The notes under the pieces: model-generated | What the model was told of the DNA's origin: nothing | Seen by the model: only the letters and a program-made list of their open reading frames with translations | Databases searched by the model: none | NCBI GenBank assembly: GCA_030605835.1 | Contig: JAUWHO010000053.1 | Span: forward strand, 1 to 34,947 | From: Candidatus Zixiibacteriota bacterium | Lineage (GTDB): Bacteria > Zixibacteria > MSB-5A5 > DG-27 | DNA: 34,947 nucleotides | Reading direction: 5' to 3' | Position numbers and translations under genes: made by a program | Shown: piece by piece, positions 1 through 24,209 of the stretch | Layout: each line of letters starts with the position of its first letter | How positions within the stretch are numbered: the stretch's first letter is position 1

Positions 1-1568
1 GCAAAAGTCCGGATCGGGAATACACCGGACATTCCGGAGCCCCATCATACTGGTCAACGAACCGAAACACCTGGATGATAGTGGACTACTTCGGACCTGA
101 CGGATTGGGATACATTCCGGAGGTCCCCTCTCATTTGACAGACTGGACCGGGAGCGCCACCGGCATCAACAACCGCATCAACAGCGGCACTTTCCTGGTG
201 CAGCACCGTGATCACGGCGGAGTCGACGGATGGTCCCACCCCAGGTATCAGATACCAGACCTCAACGGGTTGCACAACGACATGTACCCCTTTGTCTTCT
301 CCATGAACTGCCTGACCGGGAAGTTCAACCATTACAGCCAGTGCTTCGCGGAGGCATTCCACCGCGAGCCGCAGCGTGCCTTGGGTGTCGTAGCGGCCAG
401 CGACGTGTCCTACTCCTTTGTGAACGACACTTACACCTGGGGGATATACGACGCCCTCTGGCCCAACTTCGACCCCGGGTACGGCTACAACCCCGTGGGA
501 GCAAAGCCCCTTCAGACCTGCTTCGCCAACGCCTACGGCAAGCACTATCTGGAGGCTTCAAACTGGCCCTACAACTCCGGGAGCAAGGACATTACTTATC
601 ATCTCTTCCATCACCACGGAGATGCTTTCACCGACCTCTACTCGGAGGTGCCGCAGGATCTCACCGTCTCTCACGATCCCACACTGCTGCCCGGCGCCAC
701 TGAATTCACCGTGACCGCCAATGTTGGCGCTCTTATCGGACTGACCGTGGACGGCGAGATCATCGGCGTGGGCGAGGGTACCGGTTCACCGGTCTCGATA
801 CAGATTGAACCGCAGTCGCCCGGCGCAACCATGATCGTCACCGTCACTTTGGCGAACTATTATCGCTACGAGCAAGCTGTCCCCGTTGGAGGGCTTGCTA
901 TGACCATGGAGTTGCAGCCGGACGATCCCCCGGTTGTCGTTCCCCGGGGTGGTTCCTTCGGCTTCACCGGCACCGTCACCAACAACACCGACGAGGTCCA
1001 ATATGTCGACATCTGGACAATAGCGTATGTCCCCGGAATCGGAATGTATGGGCCTCTGAAGCAGTTCGTCAATTTGAGATTTGACCCCCATCAAAGCCGC
1101 GAAGCTCACTTCTACCAGCGGGTCTCCAACTCAGCTCCCATTTCGGACGAGTACTTCTATTGTGGCTACGTGGGTGACTATCCCTCAGTGACTGACTCCT
1201 CCTGCTTCCCGTTCGAGGTTATCACCGGCGCCTTGGCTAAAGCCGGTCAGAGCGGCTGGGTTCTGACAGGTTCCTTTCTGGAGGGAGATTTGGCTGACCT
1301 CCCCTCTGACTTTGCTCTGATGAAGAACTATCCAAACCCCTTCAACGCTCAGACGGTGATTGAGTATCAGTTACCGGAGACCAGCAACGTCAAGCTGGAG
1401 GTTTACAACCTCCTTGGCAGTAAGGTTGCGACCTTGGCTAATGGAGAGCAACAGGCCGGTTACAAATCTGTAACCTGGGATGCCTCCGACGTCTCTTCTG
1501 GGATCTACTTCTACAAGCTCAATGCTGGTGAATACACCGAGACGATGAGGATGATACTAGTCAAGTAA
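1..1568 (+). CDS. Gingipain-like C25 family cysteine peptidase with T9SS C-terminal domain (5' partial)
   Basis: The reading frame is open from the left edge (frame starting at base 3), so the N-terminus lies outside the window. The visible part begins inside a caspase-like C25 (gingipain) catalytic domain: the catalytic His is probably in HRDHGG (His codon 213-215) and the nucleophile Cys in SMNCLTG (Cys codon 309-311). After an Ig-like stretch (about 650-900) comes a domain of about 120 residues (about 905-1250) also found in the 5433 and 15090 genes, then a type A sorting domain starting at NYPNPFN (about 1327) and ending TMRMILVK. Known for the family: secreted cysteine endopeptidases moved across the outer membrane by T9SS, which cleaves the tail. 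Function as an active protease is inferred from the two catalytic motifs; the substrate is unknown. A terminator follows closely. Confidence 0.85.
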   Translation, partial: KSPDREYTGHSGAPSYWSTNRNTWMIVDYFGPDGLGYIPEVPSHLTDWTGSATGINNRINSGTFLVQHRDHGGVDGWSHPRYQIPDLNGLHNDMYPFVFSMNCLTGKFNHYSQCFAEAFHREPQRALGVVAASDVSYSFVNDTYTWGIYDALWPNFDPGYGYNPVGAKPLQTCFANAYGKHYLEASNWPYNSGSKDITYHLFHHHGDAFTDLYSEVPQDLTVSHDPTLLPGATEFTVTANVGALIGLTVDGEIIGVGEGTGSPVSIQIEPQSPGATMIVTVTLANYYRYEQAVPVGGLAMTMELQPDDPPVVVPRGGSFGFTGTVTNNTDEVQYVDIWTIAYVPGIGMYGPLKQFVNLRFDPHQSREAHFYQRVSNSAPISDEYFYCGYVGDYPSVTDSSCFPFEVITGALAKAGQSGWVLTGSFLEGDLADLPSDFALMKNYPNPFNAQTVIEYQLPETSNVKLEVYNLLGSKVATLANGEQQAGYKSVTWDASDVSSGIYFYKLNAGEYTETMRMILVK

Positions 1569-5432: not shown

Positions 5433-7427
5433 ATGAGAAAAGTATTACTGATGAGCTTGACTCTGGGTTTGCTTCTCGCCCTGATCATCCCGGTCTCATC
5501 CGTGGCGACTACCTCCCTAACGGAGGAGGCAACATTCCTGCGCCATACCGAAAGTGGCCCCATGCTGGTTCAAGGAGAAGGACTGCCCCAAACGGGCGCT
5601 ACACCACTGCTACCCGATCCCTGGGTGGTTTGGTCGCGCTACCTGACGGACGCCATCTACAACACCACCTCCAACACCGTGGACGCCCACAGCTTCGCGG
5701 GGACCTATTTGAACCCGCCGAAAGAGGCAGCGCTGTACGCTTCCGATGGGGGTGGCATTCCGGAGTGGGCATACGGCGGCACCGAGTTTTACACCGACGC
5801 CGCCGATGCCGGTTTCACGCTTGCGGCTGTCGATGAGGATGGCGGCGGCGTCAACGTAATCAAGTGGACCGGCCCCGGCAACGGCACTCCGGACTGGGCC
5901 ACCAGCTTTGCGGGATACGCTGTTACTTCCTACGGACCGATCGCAGTATCGGATGACGGTTCGACCATAGCCGTCGTAGCCACTCCGCCCGGCACTGACG
6001 CCCATCTGCTCTTGTTTGACGCCGGTTCAGGAACGCCTCTGATCGACTATGTGGCCTCCGGCCTGGGATTCCCCCGCTACGTGAAGATCAATGCAGATGG
6101 CCGCTACACCGCCTTTATCGCCCTGGCGACTCTGGTGGTCTTCGACCGCGACCTCTTAGCGGTCCGCGACCAGATATACATGGGAGCCAGCAACAGCGCC
6201 CTTGATATCTCCGGAGACGGGGACCTTCTGGCCTACGGCTGGACTTCCATGAGAGTCATGGAGTGGAACGGTTCCTCATACCAGCAATTATGGTCCTGGG
6301 CTACCGGAGGCTATTATGTGACCAGGATAGCAATATCCACCGATGGCAGCACCATTGTCTCTTGCTGGTACAATCTTGCGCACACGACCATCAAGGTGGT
6401 AGTTCACAGTCCCGATTCCTCTACCCCGCTCTGGATCTACGATTACCCCCATTCCAGTGGAACCTACCAGGAGGCCGCTTACGATGTCGACATCACCGAT
6501 GACGGCACCTACTTCATAATTGGCAGTTGGGGTGATGCCGAGAATCTGAACCCGGAGGTGCATATCTTCCAGAGGGATGAGACCCCACATGTATATTACA
6601 CCCTGGATATGCCGGGCTCCATGTTCTCGGTGGACATAGCCAGTGATGGCAGCTACGCCACCGCCTGCGGGAAGCATATCCATGCCAACGTATCCGGACG
6701 CGGTGGTGACATCGTCATGATCGACACCGATATCTCGGCATTATCGGATGTTTCAATCGAGATAGTCCCAGATACCATTCCGGTACGAGTACCTCAAGGT
6801 GAGCGCTTCGGCTTCACCGGAACTCTCAAGAACAACACCAATCAGCTTCAAGTCGTCGACGTCTGGACCATGGCTATGGGACCGCACTGGACGAAGCAGA
6901 TCTGGGGACCGTTCAAGCAGTTCTATAATGTGGAGCTCGCAGCTGGCGACAGTCTCGGCGGTCACTTCTATCAGCGGGTTCCCATTCTGGCGCCCCTGGG
7001 GTGGTACGACTACATCGCATACTGCGGAGACTATCCTTCAACCATTATTGATTCCTGCTTCTTCGAGATCGAGGTCATGCCGGCCGCTTTGGCCAGAGGT
7101 GAGGCCCCGGATTGGGTTCTCACGGGGTCATTTAGCCAGATTGAAAACTTCGTCAGCCTTCCCTGCGAGTTCGGGCTGATCGGCAATTATCCCAATCCAT
7201 TCAACGCCGCCACCACCATCAACTACGAACTGCCAGTTGCGGGTCACGTCAAGGTCGAGGTCTACAACATTCTCGGTGAAAGAGTGGCAACCTTGCTTGA
7301 CGAAAAGCAGGAGGCGGGTTACAAGTCTGTCAGCTGGGATGCCTCCGAGATTGCCTCTGGCATTTACTTTTACAAACTCACTGCTGGAGATTATACCGAG
7401 ACGATGAGGATGATATTGGTCAAGTAA
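5433..7427 (+). CDS. Secreted beta-propeller-like protein with T9SS C-terminal domain
   Basis: 664 residues. A signal peptide (about 1-26) has a Lys/Arg start and a Leu-rich core. Residues about 60-430 are made of repeated beta strands with phrases such as AVSDDGSTIAVV, NADGRYTAFI, DISGDGDLLAYG and DITDDGTYFIIG, which suggests a WD40- or quinoprotein-like propeller. Residues about 445-560 match the extra domain of the C25 peptidase at the left edge (FGFTGTLKNNT, WTMA, HFYQRV), and the last 90 residues are a type A sorting domain with NYPNPFN and the ending TMRMILVK. I infer export by T9SS and surface attachment or release; the ligand is unknown. The ATG is preceded by AAGGAG with good spacing. 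The 3' region carries two hairpins and a terminator. Confidence 0.85.
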   Translation: MRKVLLMSLTLGLLLALIIPVSSVATTSLTEEATFLRHTESGPMLVQGEGLPQTGATPLLPDPWVVWSRYLTDAIYNTTSNTVDAHSFAGTYLNPPKEAALYASDGGGIPEWAYGGTEFYTDAADAGFTLAAVDEDGGGVNVIKWTGPGNGTPDWATSFAGYAVTSYGPIAVSDDGSTIAVVATPPGTDAHLLLFDAGSGTPLIDYVASGLGFPRYVKINADGRYTAFIALATLVVFDRDLLAVRDQIYMGASNSALDISGDGDLLAYGWTSMRVMEWNGSSYQQLWSWATGGYYVTRIAISTDGSTIVSCWYNLAHTTIKVVVHSPDSSTPLWIYDYPHSSGTYQEAAYDVDITDDGTYFIIGSWGDAENLNPEVHIFQRDETPHVYYTLDMPGSMFSVDIASDGSYATACGKHIHANVSGRGGDIVMIDTDISALSDVSIEIVPDTIPVRVPQGERFGFTGTLKNNTNQLQVVDVWTMAMGPHWTKQIWGPFKQFYNVELAAGDSLGGHFYQRVPILAPLGWYDYIAYCGDYPSTIIDSCFFEIEVMPAALARGEAPDWVLTGSFSQIENFVSLPCEFGLIGNYPNPFNAATTINYELPVAGHVKVEVYNILGERVATLLDEKQEAGYKSVSWDASEIASGIYFYKLTAGDYTETMRMILVK

Positions 7428-15089: not shown

Positions 15090-17285
15090 TCACTTCAAGA
15101 ATGTCATTCTCATGGTCTCAGAGTAATTCCCGGCGGTAAGCCTGCAGAAGTATATTCCGCTTGTCTGCCCGGAGGCGTCCCAGATGAGGAAGTGCTTCCC
15201 GGCGCCCTTTTTTTCGTCCACCAGGGTGACCACTTTTCTGCCGAGGATGTCGAATAGCTCCAATCTGACCCTACTTGCGGTAGCGAGTTGATATTCGATG
15301 GTGGTTTCGAGATTGAACGGATTGGGATAGACTCTGGTGAGAGAAGTCAAAAAAGGAACCTCAGGAGCTCTCAGCGCCCAACCGTATAAAGTCCAGTCGA
15401 AGACCGCCGCTGCTTTGTCCCCTTCGATCTTGATTACCTCGAAATAGCTCGAATCCGCTACACTGTCTGGATAGATTCCGACATACCCGATGTAAAAGTA
15501 ACTCCCCGCCGGAGCGCCTCCGGGAACGTTCTGGTCCAGACTATCCACACGAATGGTCTGATTCGGGTCCAGTCCAACCGGCTGCAGCTCTAACGGTCCG
15601 TAGTATTCGCCGCTCGGAAGCTTAGCCATTGACCACACCTGCCAACTCTGAGGCTCACCGGTCAAATTCTTGAGCTTGGCGCGGAAGAAGAACCTCCCTC
15701 CCTGTGGCGGAATCGTAACTGGGGGATCATACGGAGTGAGTGTTAAGTCCACCACCTCTGCAGAGGAGGAACGGATTTCAAAAGAGGCTGGAGTTATTTC
15801 CTGAGCCGATCCGGAACCGCCGACGACGGTGTACCGGACATGGCAGTTGGCGGAGGTCACCTCCGTCGGCCAGATTACCTGATGACGTCCGTTGTTCGGC
15901 AGATCTTCATCTATCAGATACCAGGGCCCGTCAGGTCCGGTGAGCGACAATTCCAACCTCACCGAGGTGGTCTCGCCGGAGGGAACAGCGCTGGTCCAAT
16001 CGATAAAACCGACCGAGGCTCCAATGAAGACCTCACCGCCGCCCGGGAAAGCAGGGTGAACAGTCAGGCTGTCCGGAATCGATGTCTCCTTGAAGAACCT
16101 CAAATGATTTCGTTCGTTCGGCCAACGGCCCTCTTCGGAAACCAGAGCAATGTCAGGGTAACCATTGTGGTCAGCGTCCCCGCCAACGCGGAGGGCAGAT
16201 TTGTATCCCGGATTAGGAGTGCTGAACATTGTCACCGGGGTCCAGTTTCCAGTGCCATCGCCAGTCCAGACGACAACGTCTCCGCTCCCGAAGGCGACCA
16301 CATCCATATATCCATCCAGGTTCATGTCCGCCAGCTGGGTGGCTTCAGCGTTCCAGGAGGAGGGCAAGTTCCCGGAGAAATCGACCCACAACTCGCTTGC
16401 CTCGTCCCAACACCAGACCTCCACTCCTCCGGTGGAGTTGGTGAAAGACAGATCCATGCCTCCGTCACCGTCGACGTCTGCCAGATCAACTCCCTCATGC
16501 CCTCTTAAGCCCGGAGAGGGTAAATTCACGTCGCCATTGGTGAAGCCGCCTGCGCCGTCGTTGAAGTAGACAGTACCGTGCTGGTGAGCAACAGCGAAAT
16601 CGGGATAGCCGTCACGGTTAATATCCCCGAAGACCAAATCCATCTGAGAGTTGCCGCCCAAAAAACCGAAAGACTGCACCCAGCTACCGTCCCCCTGGTT
16701 GATGTAGACGTGAACTCCGGAACAACAACCGAAGGAGTTGGAGGCCACATCCAGAAAACCATCGCAGTCAACGTCGGCGAAATCGGTTCCAAACATCCCC
16801 CACTCCTCCCCGTTGGTGGCCAAGCCGTCATCCCAGGGTTGCCAGTTCCTTCCGGTCCCGTCACCGAGAGCAACCTCTATCAGCTGGTCTCCGAAATCGT
16901 TTCCGGAATAATTGTGATGCATGGCGTAACCGACATCGAGCAACCCGTCGTTGTTGACATCACCGACCGCAATTCCGCCATATCCGAAGTTACCGTTCTG
17001 ATAGACAGACCAGTTGCCAGCACCATCCCCGAACCAAACCATAACTCCGTGCTGGTCGCTGTTAACGTAAGGGGAACCATGGTCACCAATGGAGAGAATA
17101 TCCAGATGACCGTCACCATTCACATCCGCCAGCTCCAGCTCGGTCTGTCCTCCCTCCATCCGTGGGTAATCAAGCCCATTGGAGGATTCGACATACTCCA
17201 AAGCGTAAGCTGCACCGGAAAGCGAAAGTGATACAAAGACTACCAGAACAGAGAGCCCAACCCGCTTCTCAATGAGGTACTTCAT
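15090..17285 (-). CDS. Secreted VCBS/FG-GAP repeat protein with T9SS C-terminal domain
   Basis: 731 residues from the ATG at 17285, chosen over an earlier frame start at 17327 because it follows GGAAGGAAG and begins a clean signal peptide (about 1-28, ending SGAAYA). Residues about 30-370 hold seven calcium-loop repeats of the form DxNxDGxxD (DVNGDGHLDI, DVNNDGLLDV, DVDCDGFLDV, DINRDGYPDF, DVDGDGGMDL, DMNLDGYMDV, DHNGYPDI), which build a seven-bladed FG-GAP propeller. Then come an Ig-like part, the same extra domain as in the two T9SS proteins at 1 and 5433 (about 520-635), and a type A sorting domain with VYPNPFN that ends SETMRMTFLK. I infer a calcium-stabilised surface or released protein; the ligand is unknown. 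It is probably cotranscribed with the beta-helix gene upstream (133-base gap). Confidence 0.88.
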   Translation of the reverse strand: MKYLIEKRVGLSVLVVFVSLSLSGAAYALEYVESSNGLDYPRMEGGQTELELADVNGDGHLDILSIGDHGSPYVNSDQHGVMVWFGDGAGNWSVYQNGNFGYGGIAVGDVNNDGLLDVGYAMHHNYSGNDFGDQLIEVALGDGTGRNWQPWDDGLATNGEEWGMFGTDFADVDCDGFLDVASNSFGCCSGVHVYINQGDGSWVQSFGFLGGNSQMDLVFGDINRDGYPDFAVAHQHGTVYFNDGAGGFTNGDVNLPSPGLRGHEGVDLADVDGDGGMDLSFTNSTGGVEVWCWDEASELWVDFSGNLPSSWNAEATQLADMNLDGYMDVVAFGSGDVVVWTGDGTGNWTPVTMFSTPNPGYKSALRVGGDADHNGYPDIALVSEEGRWPNERNHLRFFKETSIPDSLTVHPAFPGGGEVFIGASVGFIDWTSAVPSGETTSVRLELSLTGPDGPWYLIDEDLPNNGRHQVIWPTEVTSANCHVRYTVVGGSGSAQEITPASFEIRSSSAEVVDLTLTPYDPPVTIPPQGGRFFFRAKLKNLTGEPQSWQVWSMAKLPSGEYYGPLELQPVGLDPNQTIRVDSLDQNVPGGAPAGSYFYIGYVGIYPDSVADSSYFEVIKIEGDKAAAVFDWTLYGWALRAPEVPFLTSLTRVYPNPFNLETTIEYQLATASRVRLELFDILGRKVVTLVDEKKGAGKHFLIWDASGQTSGIYFCRLTAGNYSETMRMTFLK

Positions 17286-17418
17286 AGCTACTTCCTTCCG
17301 CAAAAGGATTGATTTTAAGAGTTCCAATAACTCACTTCCGAAAGATCTTAGTCGTAGAAAAAACGTAGTCTAATCCAGAGAGTCCTTTACCAAAGAAGCA
17401 AGTTATTTCAGAAAGCAG

Positions 17419-21037: not shown

Positions 21038-23209
21038 CTAATAGCTTATCCTGAAACCGGTTCTGATCACATAGAAGGAACCGCTCTCCGCTCCGTAAAC
21101 GTAGGGTTGGTCGTCTGTCAAGTCGTAGTAATCGGCATCCGCGGTCAGAGAGACTTGGGGTGACAACTTGTATTCTAAGCCCAAGGAGAGAGTGAACCAC
21201 TCGTAAGAGAGGTCGGAATACTGATCTACGCTGGAGTAATCGTAGTCGCTCGCGGCGATCTCGTTCGTCACCTCAGCCGGAGCCTGAGGCATCTGGATGG
21301 GATCGAAGGAGGCCTCGCTCTTGAGGTAGTTGCCCTGCAGGGAGAAGTTCAAGCTTCTTTCCGGGCTGAAGAAAACCCCAGCCTGGAGGTTATGAGATTT
21401 GGAGCTGTATTCGGTCTCTGCGAAAAGGGAGCCATAGTGCTTCACGCCACCACCTGTGGCGCCGGCAAAGTGACCCCCTCACCCATCCATCATCGGTACT
21501 ACCGCCAAGCCGTTCGACTTATCGAAAAGATAAGTATAATCACCGAAGAAGTTCCAGCTAGCATTTGGGGAGATGTTGACCAAGAAGTGAGGTTGAAACT
21601 TGGTGCGTTTGAAGTCTAAGTTCTCGTTATCCCCGTTCGTCTCCACGCGCACCTTCAATCCCGGTGAGAAGCTGAACTTCCGAGTGGGTTTGAAGCTCAA
21701 GCTCACTTCTACTCCATGACGACTGGTTGGCTGATTGGTGACATCCCCATAGCGGATGGAATCGCGCTGGAAGTAGAAAACCTGAGAGTTATTAGCCAGA
21801 GGAGCCAAAACCGGATTGCCGGAGGCTTCAAACATCCTCCCGGAAGGTGAAAACGGAGTGTCGATGCTCTCGAATGAGTATTTCAGTCGACCGGTGAATT
21901 TCAAACTGGGCCTGTACTTCACTCCCATCTGAAATTTGAGCTTGGTGGTTTTCTGATCGGCGCCAAGCTCGGGATAATCACCCCTCGTTATCCCCTGATA
22001 GCCTGCCAGAAAGGAGAGGCGATATCTCCTGCTCGGCTGGTATAGCATCTCCAGCGAACCCTTGACCTCGGCGCGGGTCAGATTAGAGTAGCGAGTGAAA
22101 TCGAAGCTCTGACCTCCACCGGTTAAACCATCCCTCCAGGGGGCGAGGTCGACTATGACCTCGTCGTTCTCAATCTTGCCCATCGAAGCGGAGGCCACCA
22201 TCTTGGTCTTACTGGAGAGGGGATAGATAAACTTCAGGCTGCCGTGATTGCCTTTGGCCTTGAGGTCAACAGTCTGGTTATCCACGGTGGAATTGGTGAA
22301 TCCACCTAGAAGCTGACCTCGACCCAGCTCGGTCTTGACCTTGATGGTGTGAGCTAACTTCTGGATGTCCGCATACTGGCCAAAGGGAACGAACTCTCCA
22401 TCGAAGTTCACCCGGGAGCCGAATTCATCTATAGCCCCACCGTTCACCGGATGCTGGGCGGTGTCGTAGAAAGCCTCGACAGTGGTGACTTCCGATCTGA
22501 AATTCCGATAGCTGAACTCGTAAGATAAAAGCAGTGGTCCGGCCTCACCTTCAACCCCGGTATTGATTGTGTGAGTGCGGCGATCGACCGAGGCAGAGGT
22601 CGAAACCATGTGACAGGAGGAACAGTGCATGGAAACCACCTTCTGCTCCTCGCCGTCCTCCAAGAGTGACCGGTGGGTAACCCAGAACCTCACCCCGGAG
22701 GCACCCGGAACCTTCACCTGAAAATCAGTTTCAATCTGGTGCCGGGTATATCCGAAATCAGCTCCCGAGGCCTTATCCTCATAAGTTACCATTTTGCCAC
22801 CGGGAGTGCCTGCGGTTCGATCAGTCGCCTCCCGAACCACTAGATTCCTCAAAAGATCTGTCCCCCTCTGGCGGTGAAAGGATTTGTAGGAAACCCGTGC
22901 GGAGATGATATCTTTTGAACGTCCCTCCAGCTCAAGCGACATCCTCTTGGGGTCGTAGTAATGCCCGGAAATATAGAAATTCTCCTTCTCCCGGTAGCCG
23001 GAATATCGTAATGCTATCTCCGGCATCACCCCTTCTTCACCCCGATCAAACTCCCCGACCCTTTTGTAGTAGTCCTCAAACCCGGTGTAGTGACCCCCCA
23101 CCCACAAGCTCCAGGTGGAAAAGCCTTCCTGGGCAGAGACCGGAGCCGGAGGAAGTGAAAAGCCGATTGCCAGCGCAACTATAGCAACAGTCAAAAACAA
23201 TCTTTTCAT
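21038..23209 (-). CDS. MtrB/PioB-type (GSU2204-like) CxxCH-containing porin with in-frame UGA, probable selenoprotein
   Basis: 723 residues if the TGA at 21479-21481 (codon 577) is read through. Upstream: signal peptide (about 1-26, ending VSA) and many alternating beta strands. Downstream: further strands in the same frame, ending GFRISY with the C-terminal aromatic of outer-membrane barrels. The second part has no start signal or export signal of its own, and the joined length fits MtrB-type porins (about 700). CSSCH at residues 196-200 is a possible heme site. Around the UGA the protein reads MMDG-U-GGHFAG, and a hairpin with an AGGU loop follows. From memory, NCBI names a family 'GSU2204 family CXXCH-containing (seleno)protein', next to GSU2203-type decaheme cytochromes, which is exactly this context. 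Alternatives: point mutation or sequence error. ATG after AAGGAG, 10 bases after the cytochrome gene. Confidence 0.8.
21445..21461 (-). promoter_or_regulatory. Candidate bacterial SECIS hairpin
   Basis: On the minus strand, 17 bases after the UGA, CGCCAC-AGGUG-GUGGCG forms a 6-bp stem with a 5-base loop, extendable by a G-U pair. The loop starts 24 bases after the UGA and has G at its second and third positions. The fdhF SECIS loop of E. coli (AGGUCU) starts with the same four bases at a similar distance. Confidence 0.5.
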
Positions 23210-23219
23210 CTGTTTCTCC

Positions 23220-24209
23220 TTACCTTGTCAGTGCTCTGCCGTGACCCGAAATTGACTGGGCGGGAAGATCAGACCCGTGGATTTCGGAGTGACATTGGGT
23301 GCATTTGGTTAAAAACGCCTGCTTCATGCCGTCGCGGCTGGAGAGGCCTCCTCGTTCTGGATGCACCGGAGCAATGAAATCTCCCTCGAAGCCTGTGAGT
23401 CCCGTGTGGAAATGCATCGCATGGCAGGAGAGGCAAAGGAACGGCTCATTCTGAATGAGCAGATTGTCGGCGACGGTCCCGTGAGGATTGTGGCAGATTC
23501 CACAGTCTTCGTTGACCGGCTCGTGTTCGAAAATGAAGGGGCCCTCTTTCGAAGCGTGGCAGGAGAAGCAAAGCTCACGATCTCCATGGTCTACCGCAAA
23601 CTTTACAGTGCCCCCGTGGACCGCGTGACAGTCGTAGCAGCGGATCAGACCCTCCGCGACTGGATGGTGAGAGGGCAGACGAAACTCCGCCCTGGTGTCT
23701 AAGTGACAATCAAAACACAATCCGGGGTCCTCTTTTTTAAGGAGGTGTCTCTTTTCGGAATGAACTTGATGGCAGTCACCACAACCCTCTGCCACCTCGG
23801 AGTGCGCCAGGCCACCGAAAGAATCCATTGTGCCACTTCGATGGCAGTTATTGCACCGATTCCTTTCCGTGATGGAGTAATCCTTGGAGGGATGATAGAT
23901 CAGATCAGGGTCTCCCTCTTCGGCGTGTATTGAGCCCGGACCGTGGCAAGCTTCGCAGGTATTGTCACCTCCAACCGAGAGCCTGGCGTGGATGTTGCCA
24001 GAGAAAGCCACGCTTCTCTCCTCGTGACACCACGAGCAGGTCTCGTCACCGACCATCTCAGCACCGGCAGGCGACTTCGCCAGGACGCAAGCTCCACTGA
24101 GGAAAAGGAGCCCCATGAAGAAGGCGAAGGCTTTGCCCCACGAACGGTTCTTGAGAGGAGGAATAGGAAACTTCAGCCTCCTCACAATAGCATGGTTTTT
24201 GATGAACAT
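23220..24209 (-). CDS. Decaheme c-type cytochrome (MtrA/DmsE or GSU2203 type)
   Basis: 329 residues with ten CxxCH motifs (first Cys at 58, 85, 119, 143, 165, 191, 214, 236, 259, 303). A hydrophobic segment at about 25-45 (AFAFFMGLLFLSGACVLA) is a signal peptide or anchor. Length and heme number match MtrA (333 residues, ten hemes). Known for the family: MtrA-like decahemes sit inside an MtrB-like porin and carry electrons through the outer membrane. The porin gene follows after 10 bases, so the pair is very probably such a conduit. No outer-surface multiheme cytochrome (MtrC, OmcA) is in the window. Direction of electron flow, out to minerals or in from a donor, is not shown. ATG at 24209 after AGGAG; promoter at 24271-24299. 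Confidence 0.92.
   Translation of the reverse strand: MFIKNHAIVRRLKFPIPPLKNRSWGKAFAFFMGLLFLSGACVLAKSPAGAEMVGDETCSWCHEERSVAFSGNIHARLSVGGDNTCEACHGPGSIHAEEGDPDLIYHPSKDYSITERNRCNNCHRSGTMDSFGGLAHSEVAEGCGDCHQVHSEKRHLLKKEDPGLCFDCHLDTRAEFRLPSHHPVAEGLIRCYDCHAVHGGTVKFAVDHGDRELCFSCHASKEGPFIFEHEPVNEDCGICHNPHGTVADNLLIQNEPFLCLSCHAMHFHTGLTGFEGDFIAPVHPERGGLSSRDGMKQAFLTKCTQCHSEIHGSDLPAQSISGHGRALTR

What the first reader, a model, noticed from the sequence alone, without database searches (positions are those of the whole stretch)
21038..23209. Outer-membrane porin with an in-frame UGA that is probably selenocysteine
One barrel gene is open from 23209 to 21038 except for TGA at 21479-21481. Frame is kept, the C-terminal part has no start or export signal and ends with the normal barrel aromatic. 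A 6-bp hairpin with an AGGUG loop starts 17 bases after the UGA, close in form and distance to bacterial SECIS elements. From memory, a GSU2204-type family is described as CXXCH-containing (seleno)protein. A selenocysteine in a Gly-rich segment of an electron-conduit porin would place selenium chemistry at the outer membrane. TGA ends several other genes in this window, so global reassignment is unlikely.
Basis: partly seen in the sequence, partly recalled or inferred. Interest (0 to 1): 0.85.

Follow-up and report, generated by a model that had tools for sequence, protein, structure and literature searches.

The report
Selenium-containing electron-conduit barrel protein
This gene makes an outer-membrane barrel that probably helps carry electrons out of the cell, and one of its codons that would normally mean 'stop' almost certainly inserts selenocysteine; the family was already predicted to contain selenium, but what the selenium does is unknown.

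Summary
One 723-residue barrel gene (23209-21038, minus strand) is interrupted only by TGA at 21479-21481. It belongs to NCBIfam NF041027, 'GSU2204 family CXXCH-containing (seleno)protein' (517 bits; model ends at the residue before the UGA), and follows a GSU2203-type decahaem cytochrome gene. Selenocysteine is strongly supported. The genome has selA, selB, tRNA-Sec (UCA) and a selD with its own in-frame UGA. All 54 clean same-phylum homologues spanning the site have exactly one in-frame TGA. The downstream hairpin (7 bp, AGGUG loop, 23 nt after UGA) covaries strongly over 36 distinct homologues. Two Acidobacteriota-type homologues have Cys (TGC) at exactly this column; they have lost the hairpin, and selA was not found in their genomes. 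The predicted fold is a 26-strand barrel closest to MtrB. Strand parity puts both the selenocysteine loop and the CXXCH haem motif on the extracellular side in two models; their distance could not be measured. The family was already listed as a predicted selenoprotein, so this is a new member of a known kind. Added here: the Sec/Cys switch, the covariation, the wide distribution and the topology. The chemistry of the selenium is unknown.

The parts
21038..23209 (-). Barrel gene, GSU2204 family; 723 aa with selenocysteine at residue 577
   Evidence: translation; NF041027 517 bits; fold match to MtrB 6r2q_B
21479..21481 (-). In-frame UGA, read as selenocysteine (residue 577, motif MDG-U-GGH)
   Evidence: Conserved as TGA in all clean homologues spanning the site or replaced by TGC Cys
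21444..21462 (-). SECIS-like hairpin: 7 bp stem, AGGUG loop, 23 nt after the UGA
   Evidence: covariation score 0.606 against 0.198 +/- 0.023 shuffled
22610..22624 (-). CXXCH haem c motif (CSSCH, residues 196-200), in a predicted extracellular loop
   Evidence: Invariant in A1 and A3; position; topology
23220..24209 (-). GSU2203-type decahaem c cytochrome (10 CXXCH), upstream gene of the same operon
   Evidence: NF041028 337.9 bits over cut-off 325; 10 motifs; same order in most related loci

Best explanation
The gene encodes a selenoprotein: UGA at residue 577 is decoded as selenocysteine by SelB and tRNA-Sec with the hairpin just downstream as SECIS. The product is exported and forms a 26-strand MtrB-like outer-membrane barrel that, with the decahaem cytochrome encoded just upstream, makes an electron conduit across the outer membrane. 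Selenocysteine and a single CXXCH haem lie in two loops on the same, extracellular, side, and most invariant residues lie in the extracellular loops. The most likely role is a redox site at the outer mouth of the conduit, with the selenocysteine acting with or near the haem to pass electrons to an external acceptor or partner cytochrome. Shown by sequence: UGA conservation, covarying hairpin, Sec/Cys exchange, sel genes, gene order. Predicted: fold and topology. Inferred: haem attachment, complex formation, and the role of selenium.
For: Family NF041027. selB, selA, tRNA-Sec, selD. 54 same-phylum matches spanning residue 577 with exactly one TGA; codon verified in 30 phylum loci and in 30 of 31 named records, the last being an alignment shift with TGA one residue away. 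Cys (TGC) at the same column in L094 and L095, hairpin lost, no selA found in those two genomes, versus selA in 29 of 35 checked. Stem covariation: 63 double-changed cells against 21 expected, 0 of 500 shuffles. MtrB 6r2q_B best fold match, E 6e-21, TM 0.66/0.73. Same topology in a second model of a distant homologue. Decahaem-barrel gene order conserved. 20 of 32 invariant residues in extracellular loops.
Against: No protein or selenium measurement. The loop holding residue 577 has pLDDT under 50 in both models, so its distance to the haem motif is unknown. The anchored hairpin alignment was chosen by pairing, which favours the structure, although spacing varies only by whole codons (20, 23, 26 nt). 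No extracellular cytochrome gene lies next to this operon in the window. Several UGA-bearing relatives also gave no selA hit (G450, G540, G386, G220), so absence of selA in the two Cys genomes is not by itself decisive in incomplete assemblies.
Confidence: 0.85

Rival explanations
1. The UGA is a true stop: a nonsense mutation or sequencing error in a broken gene, or a two-part barrel.
For: UGA is used as a stop by other genes in the window; the assembly is a draft in 53 contigs.
Against: The same TGA is kept in dozens of independent assemblies over several phyla with the downstream 145 codons conserved; the C-terminal part has no export signal and completes the last strands of the barrel.
Confidence: 0.02
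2. UGA is read as another amino acid (Trp, Gly or other) by reassignment or plain readthrough, without selenium.
For: A read-through product is clearly selected for.
Against: Seven of 20 main window ORFs end at TGA; a tRNA-Sec with UCA anticodon and full sel set are present; the only other residue seen is Cys, with loss of the hairpin; the hairpin covaries.
Confidence: 0.03
3. It is a selenoprotein barrel, but the selenocysteine is not a catalytic redox centre: it ligates the haem iron or holds loops or a partner cytochrome together.
For: Both redox motifs are among the few invariant columns at about 20-25% identity; the only invariant Cys besides 577 are those of CXXCH, so no resolving Cys partner is conserved in the same chain.
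Against: No distance can be read from the models; replacement by Cys in one lineage fits ligand, structural and catalytic roles alike.
Confidence: 0.35

Closest known systems
NCBIfam NF041027, GSU2204 family CXXCH-containing (seleno)protein (Geobacter sulfurreducens GSU2204; listed as predicted selenoprotein in Table 1 of PMC13188914)
   Same: Above curated cut-off over the whole model, one Sec, one CXXCH, next to a GSU2203-type decahaem cytochrome.
   Different: Different phylum (Zixibacteria-like lineage by its relatives); no functional difference seen.
MtrB of the Shewanella Mtr complex (PDB 6r2q chain B), MtrB/PioB family
   Same: 26-strand barrel, decahaem partner, best match by fold.
   Different: About 11% identity; far below the TIGR03509 cut-off; carries its own CXXCH and a selenocysteine.
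OmcKL-type conduit of Geobacter and HotSeep-1 (PMC10553843)
   Same: OmcK is GSU2203, and the pair is proposed as a porin-cytochrome conduit in direct interspecies electron transfer; GSU2203 and GSU2204 rise on haematite and magnetite (PMC4070692).
   Different: That paper does not mention selenocysteine; the identity of its OmcL with GSU2204 is my inference.
ExtKL, selenocysteine-containing multihaem cytochrome of Geobacter (PMC5877670)
   Same: Predicted Sec in extracellular electron transfer machinery.
   Different: A cytochrome, not a barrel; a different family (NF040886).

Membership tests
Bacterial selenoprotein | In-frame UGA conserved with conserved coding on both sides | tested here: met
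Bacterial selenoprotein | Hairpin 16-37 nt downstream with G in first two loop positions (model in PMC13188914) | tested here: met
   (window copy -11.1 kcal/mol, spacing 23); covariation
Bacterial selenoprotein | selA, selB, selD and tRNA-Sec in the genome | tested here: met
Bacterial selenoprotein | Cys-containing homologue at the same position | tested here: met
   L094 and L095, TGC
Bacterial selenoprotein | Selenium measured in the protein | not testable with these tools
   No experiment
NF041027 GSU2204 family | Score above curated cut-off 350 bits | tested here: met
   517.2 bits
MtrB/PioB family TIGR03509 | Score above curated cut-off 240 bits | tested here: not met
   28.9 bits; Pfam PF11854 33.8 bits over its cut-off 23
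Mtr-type conduit (works like) | 26-strand barrel adjacent to a decahaem cytochrome | tested here: met
Mtr-type conduit (works like) | Third, extracellular multihaem cytochrome | tested here: inconclusive
   Common downstream in relatives, not adjacent in this window

The most novel reading that the evidence does not exclude
The barrel is not a passive sleeve: its conserved extracellular loops form an external active site in which a c haem and a selenocysteine work together, so that the conduit wall itself is an extracellular selenoenzyme.
Probability: 0.3. Interest if true: 0.8.

Novelty: new member of a known kind. Interest (0 to 1): 0.48.

Why it matters
Selenocysteine at the cell surface, in the wall of an electron conduit, is unusual: most characterised selenoproteins are thioredoxin-fold or other soluble redox enzymes. 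The family is already catalogued, but I found no study of it as a selenoprotein in the papers held. It is shared by Zixibacteria, Calditrichota and Acidobacteriota-type genomes and is named after a Geobacter gene, and the related OmcKL conduit is proposed in direct electron transfer between methane-oxidising archaea and their partners. A natural Cys form gives a ready comparison for testing what selenium contributes.

Tried and rejected
Rfam at gathering thresholds finds nothing in the window. The single-sequence scan of genome contigs found no relatives; the alignment query did. PDB sequence search with the alignment gave no hit, so the fold link rests on the model. Plasmid collection: no match. 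selA co-occurrence inside the phylum is uninformative because nearly all genomes have it. The review credits the family to PLoS Genet 2008 (PMC2398784), but that main text has no mention of cytochrome or outer membrane, so the original prediction was not traced. Haft and Tolstoy 2025 is not held. A true stop or sequencing error, and general UGA reassignment, were rejected as explained under the rivals. Paralogue L102 (G298) lacks the Sec loop altogether and is not a counter-example at the site. Geobacter copies themselves could not be fetched, so Sec in GSU2204 rests on the NCBIfam name and the review.

Full report
Observation. The minus-strand frame 23209-21038 reads 723 residues with one interruption, TGA at 21479-21481, residue 577. 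The frame continues with 146 residues, ends in a barrel-type aromatic and has no other stop. UGA is a normal stop for 7 of 20 main ORFs of the window.

Identity. The read-through protein matches NCBIfam NF041027, 'GSU2204 family CXXCH-containing (seleno)protein', at 517 bits (cut-off 350); the model ends at protein residue 576, immediately before the UGA. The upstream gene 23220-24209 is NF041028, GSU2203 family decahaem cytochrome (337.9 bits, cut-off 325). A 2026 review (PMC13188914) lists NF041027 among predicted selenoproteins. The kind is therefore known.

Machinery. The genome (2.68 Mb, 96% complete) has selB (368 bits), selA (574 bits), selD (370 bits) and tRNA-Sec (69.8 bits) above cut-off. 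ARAGORN calls tRNA-SeC with anticodon UCA. The selD gene has its own UGA in SGAG-U-AAK, which fits the UxxK motif of Sec-containing SelD.

Conservation. In 133 genomes of the phylum, 60 have a match. By my count of the table, 54 matches that span residue 577 have exactly one in-frame TGA; one degenerate copy (G040) has a TGA and a TAG. Codons were read directly for 30 phylum loci and 31 named records including Calditrichota, Aminicenantes and KSB1 records. In the latter, 30 align TGA with residue 577 and in L055 a gap shifts the TGA by one residue. The two sets overlap in part, because some named records are the same genomes.

Sec/Cys pair. In a sample of 396 genomes from the phylum of the Aminicenantes genome G134, 37 have relatives, mostly at 23-29% identity. 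Of the copies read, all with the site have TGA there except L094 and L095, which have TGC. UGA copies keep a hairpin 20-23 nt downstream, -2.9 to -14.2 kcal/mol by simple stem scoring; the two Cys copies score -0.1 and -3.2. selA was not found in either Cys genome and was found in 29 of 35 genomes checked. The other four without selA carry UGA and are probably incomplete assemblies. In the tree the Cys pair sits among Sec forms, so Cys is most simply derived; the pair counts as one event.

SECIS. Thirty-six distinct hairpins were anchored on an N-G-[G/T]-N-N loop. Pair 1 is C-G in all; pair 2 is paired in all 36 with four pair types (AU 16, UA 9, GC 8, CG 3); pair 5 is paired in all. Covariation score is 0.606 against 0.198 +/- 0.023 in shuffles and at most 0.164 in slid controls. 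The anchor was chosen by pairing, which leans towards the structure, but spacing only takes the values 20, 23 and 26 nt. By a strict perfect-stem rule only 36 of 1259 TGA triplets of the window pass; not every family member passes that rule either, because many stems have a mismatch at pair 4.

Structure. The AlphaFold2 model (pLDDT 80, pTM 0.74) has 26 barrel strands. Its best PDB match is MtrB, 6r2q_B (E 6.4e-21, TM 0.66/0.73); the next hit is at E 9e-10. A model of the distant homologue L089 has the same 26 strands. With the last strand ending in the periplasm, as in known outer-membrane barrels (general knowledge), the loops between strands 7 and 8 (CXXCH) and between 21 and 22 (residue 577) are extracellular in both. 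All turns assigned to the periplasm are short, 2-7 residues. Twenty of 32 invariant residues lie in the extracellular loops, which make up 251 of 723 positions; none lie in periplasmic turns. In ordinary barrels these loops are usually the most variable (general knowledge; no control set was run). Across phyla only 14 columns are invariant, among them the CXXCH residues and Gly-Sec/Cys. The only invariant Cys besides 577 are those of CXXCH.

Context. The order decahaem cytochrome then barrel is kept in most related loci, often preceded by a protein of about 200 residues and followed by large multihaem cytochromes. In this window no further multihaem gene follows. GSU2203 is OmcK; GSU2203 and GSU2204 rise on haematite and magnetite in Geobacter (PMC4070692), and an OmcKL conduit is proposed for partners of methane-oxidising archaea (PMC10553843), without mention of selenocysteine.

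Conclusion. The recoded UGA is as well supported as sequence alone allows (about 0.97). A conduit role is likely (about 0.85), extracellular placement of both motifs fairly likely (about 0.8), and joint action of selenium and haem is a hypothesis (about 0.3).

Noticed in passing
L016 (G000:C52): selD of this genome is itself a UGA-containing selenoprotein gene (SGAG-U-AAK), next to selA.
   Followed up: partly
window 21038-23209: The window barrel groups with Calditrichota (L082) and Aminicenantes (L083) copies and L022 rather than with two other same-class copies (L032, L041), support 100/99; possible lateral transfer.
   Followed up: no
L055 7302-12088 and L056 7198-10836: A second, haemless barrel of about 530 aa with its own decahaem and a 16- or 5-haem cytochrome lies beside the Sec-barrel operon, looking like an ordinary conduit.
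   Followed up: no
L102 (G298:C1:2154500-2157600): Paralogue with CXXCH but without the Sec/Cys loop, in a genome that also has the UGA form.
   Followed up: no
window 75-1568, 5433-7427, 15090-17327: Three proteins with type IX secretion C-terminal sorting domains; the first is a C25 (gingipain-type) peptidase relative.
   Followed up: no
L079: KSB1 copy is split over frames (frameshifts) but keeps the UGA.
   Followed up: no
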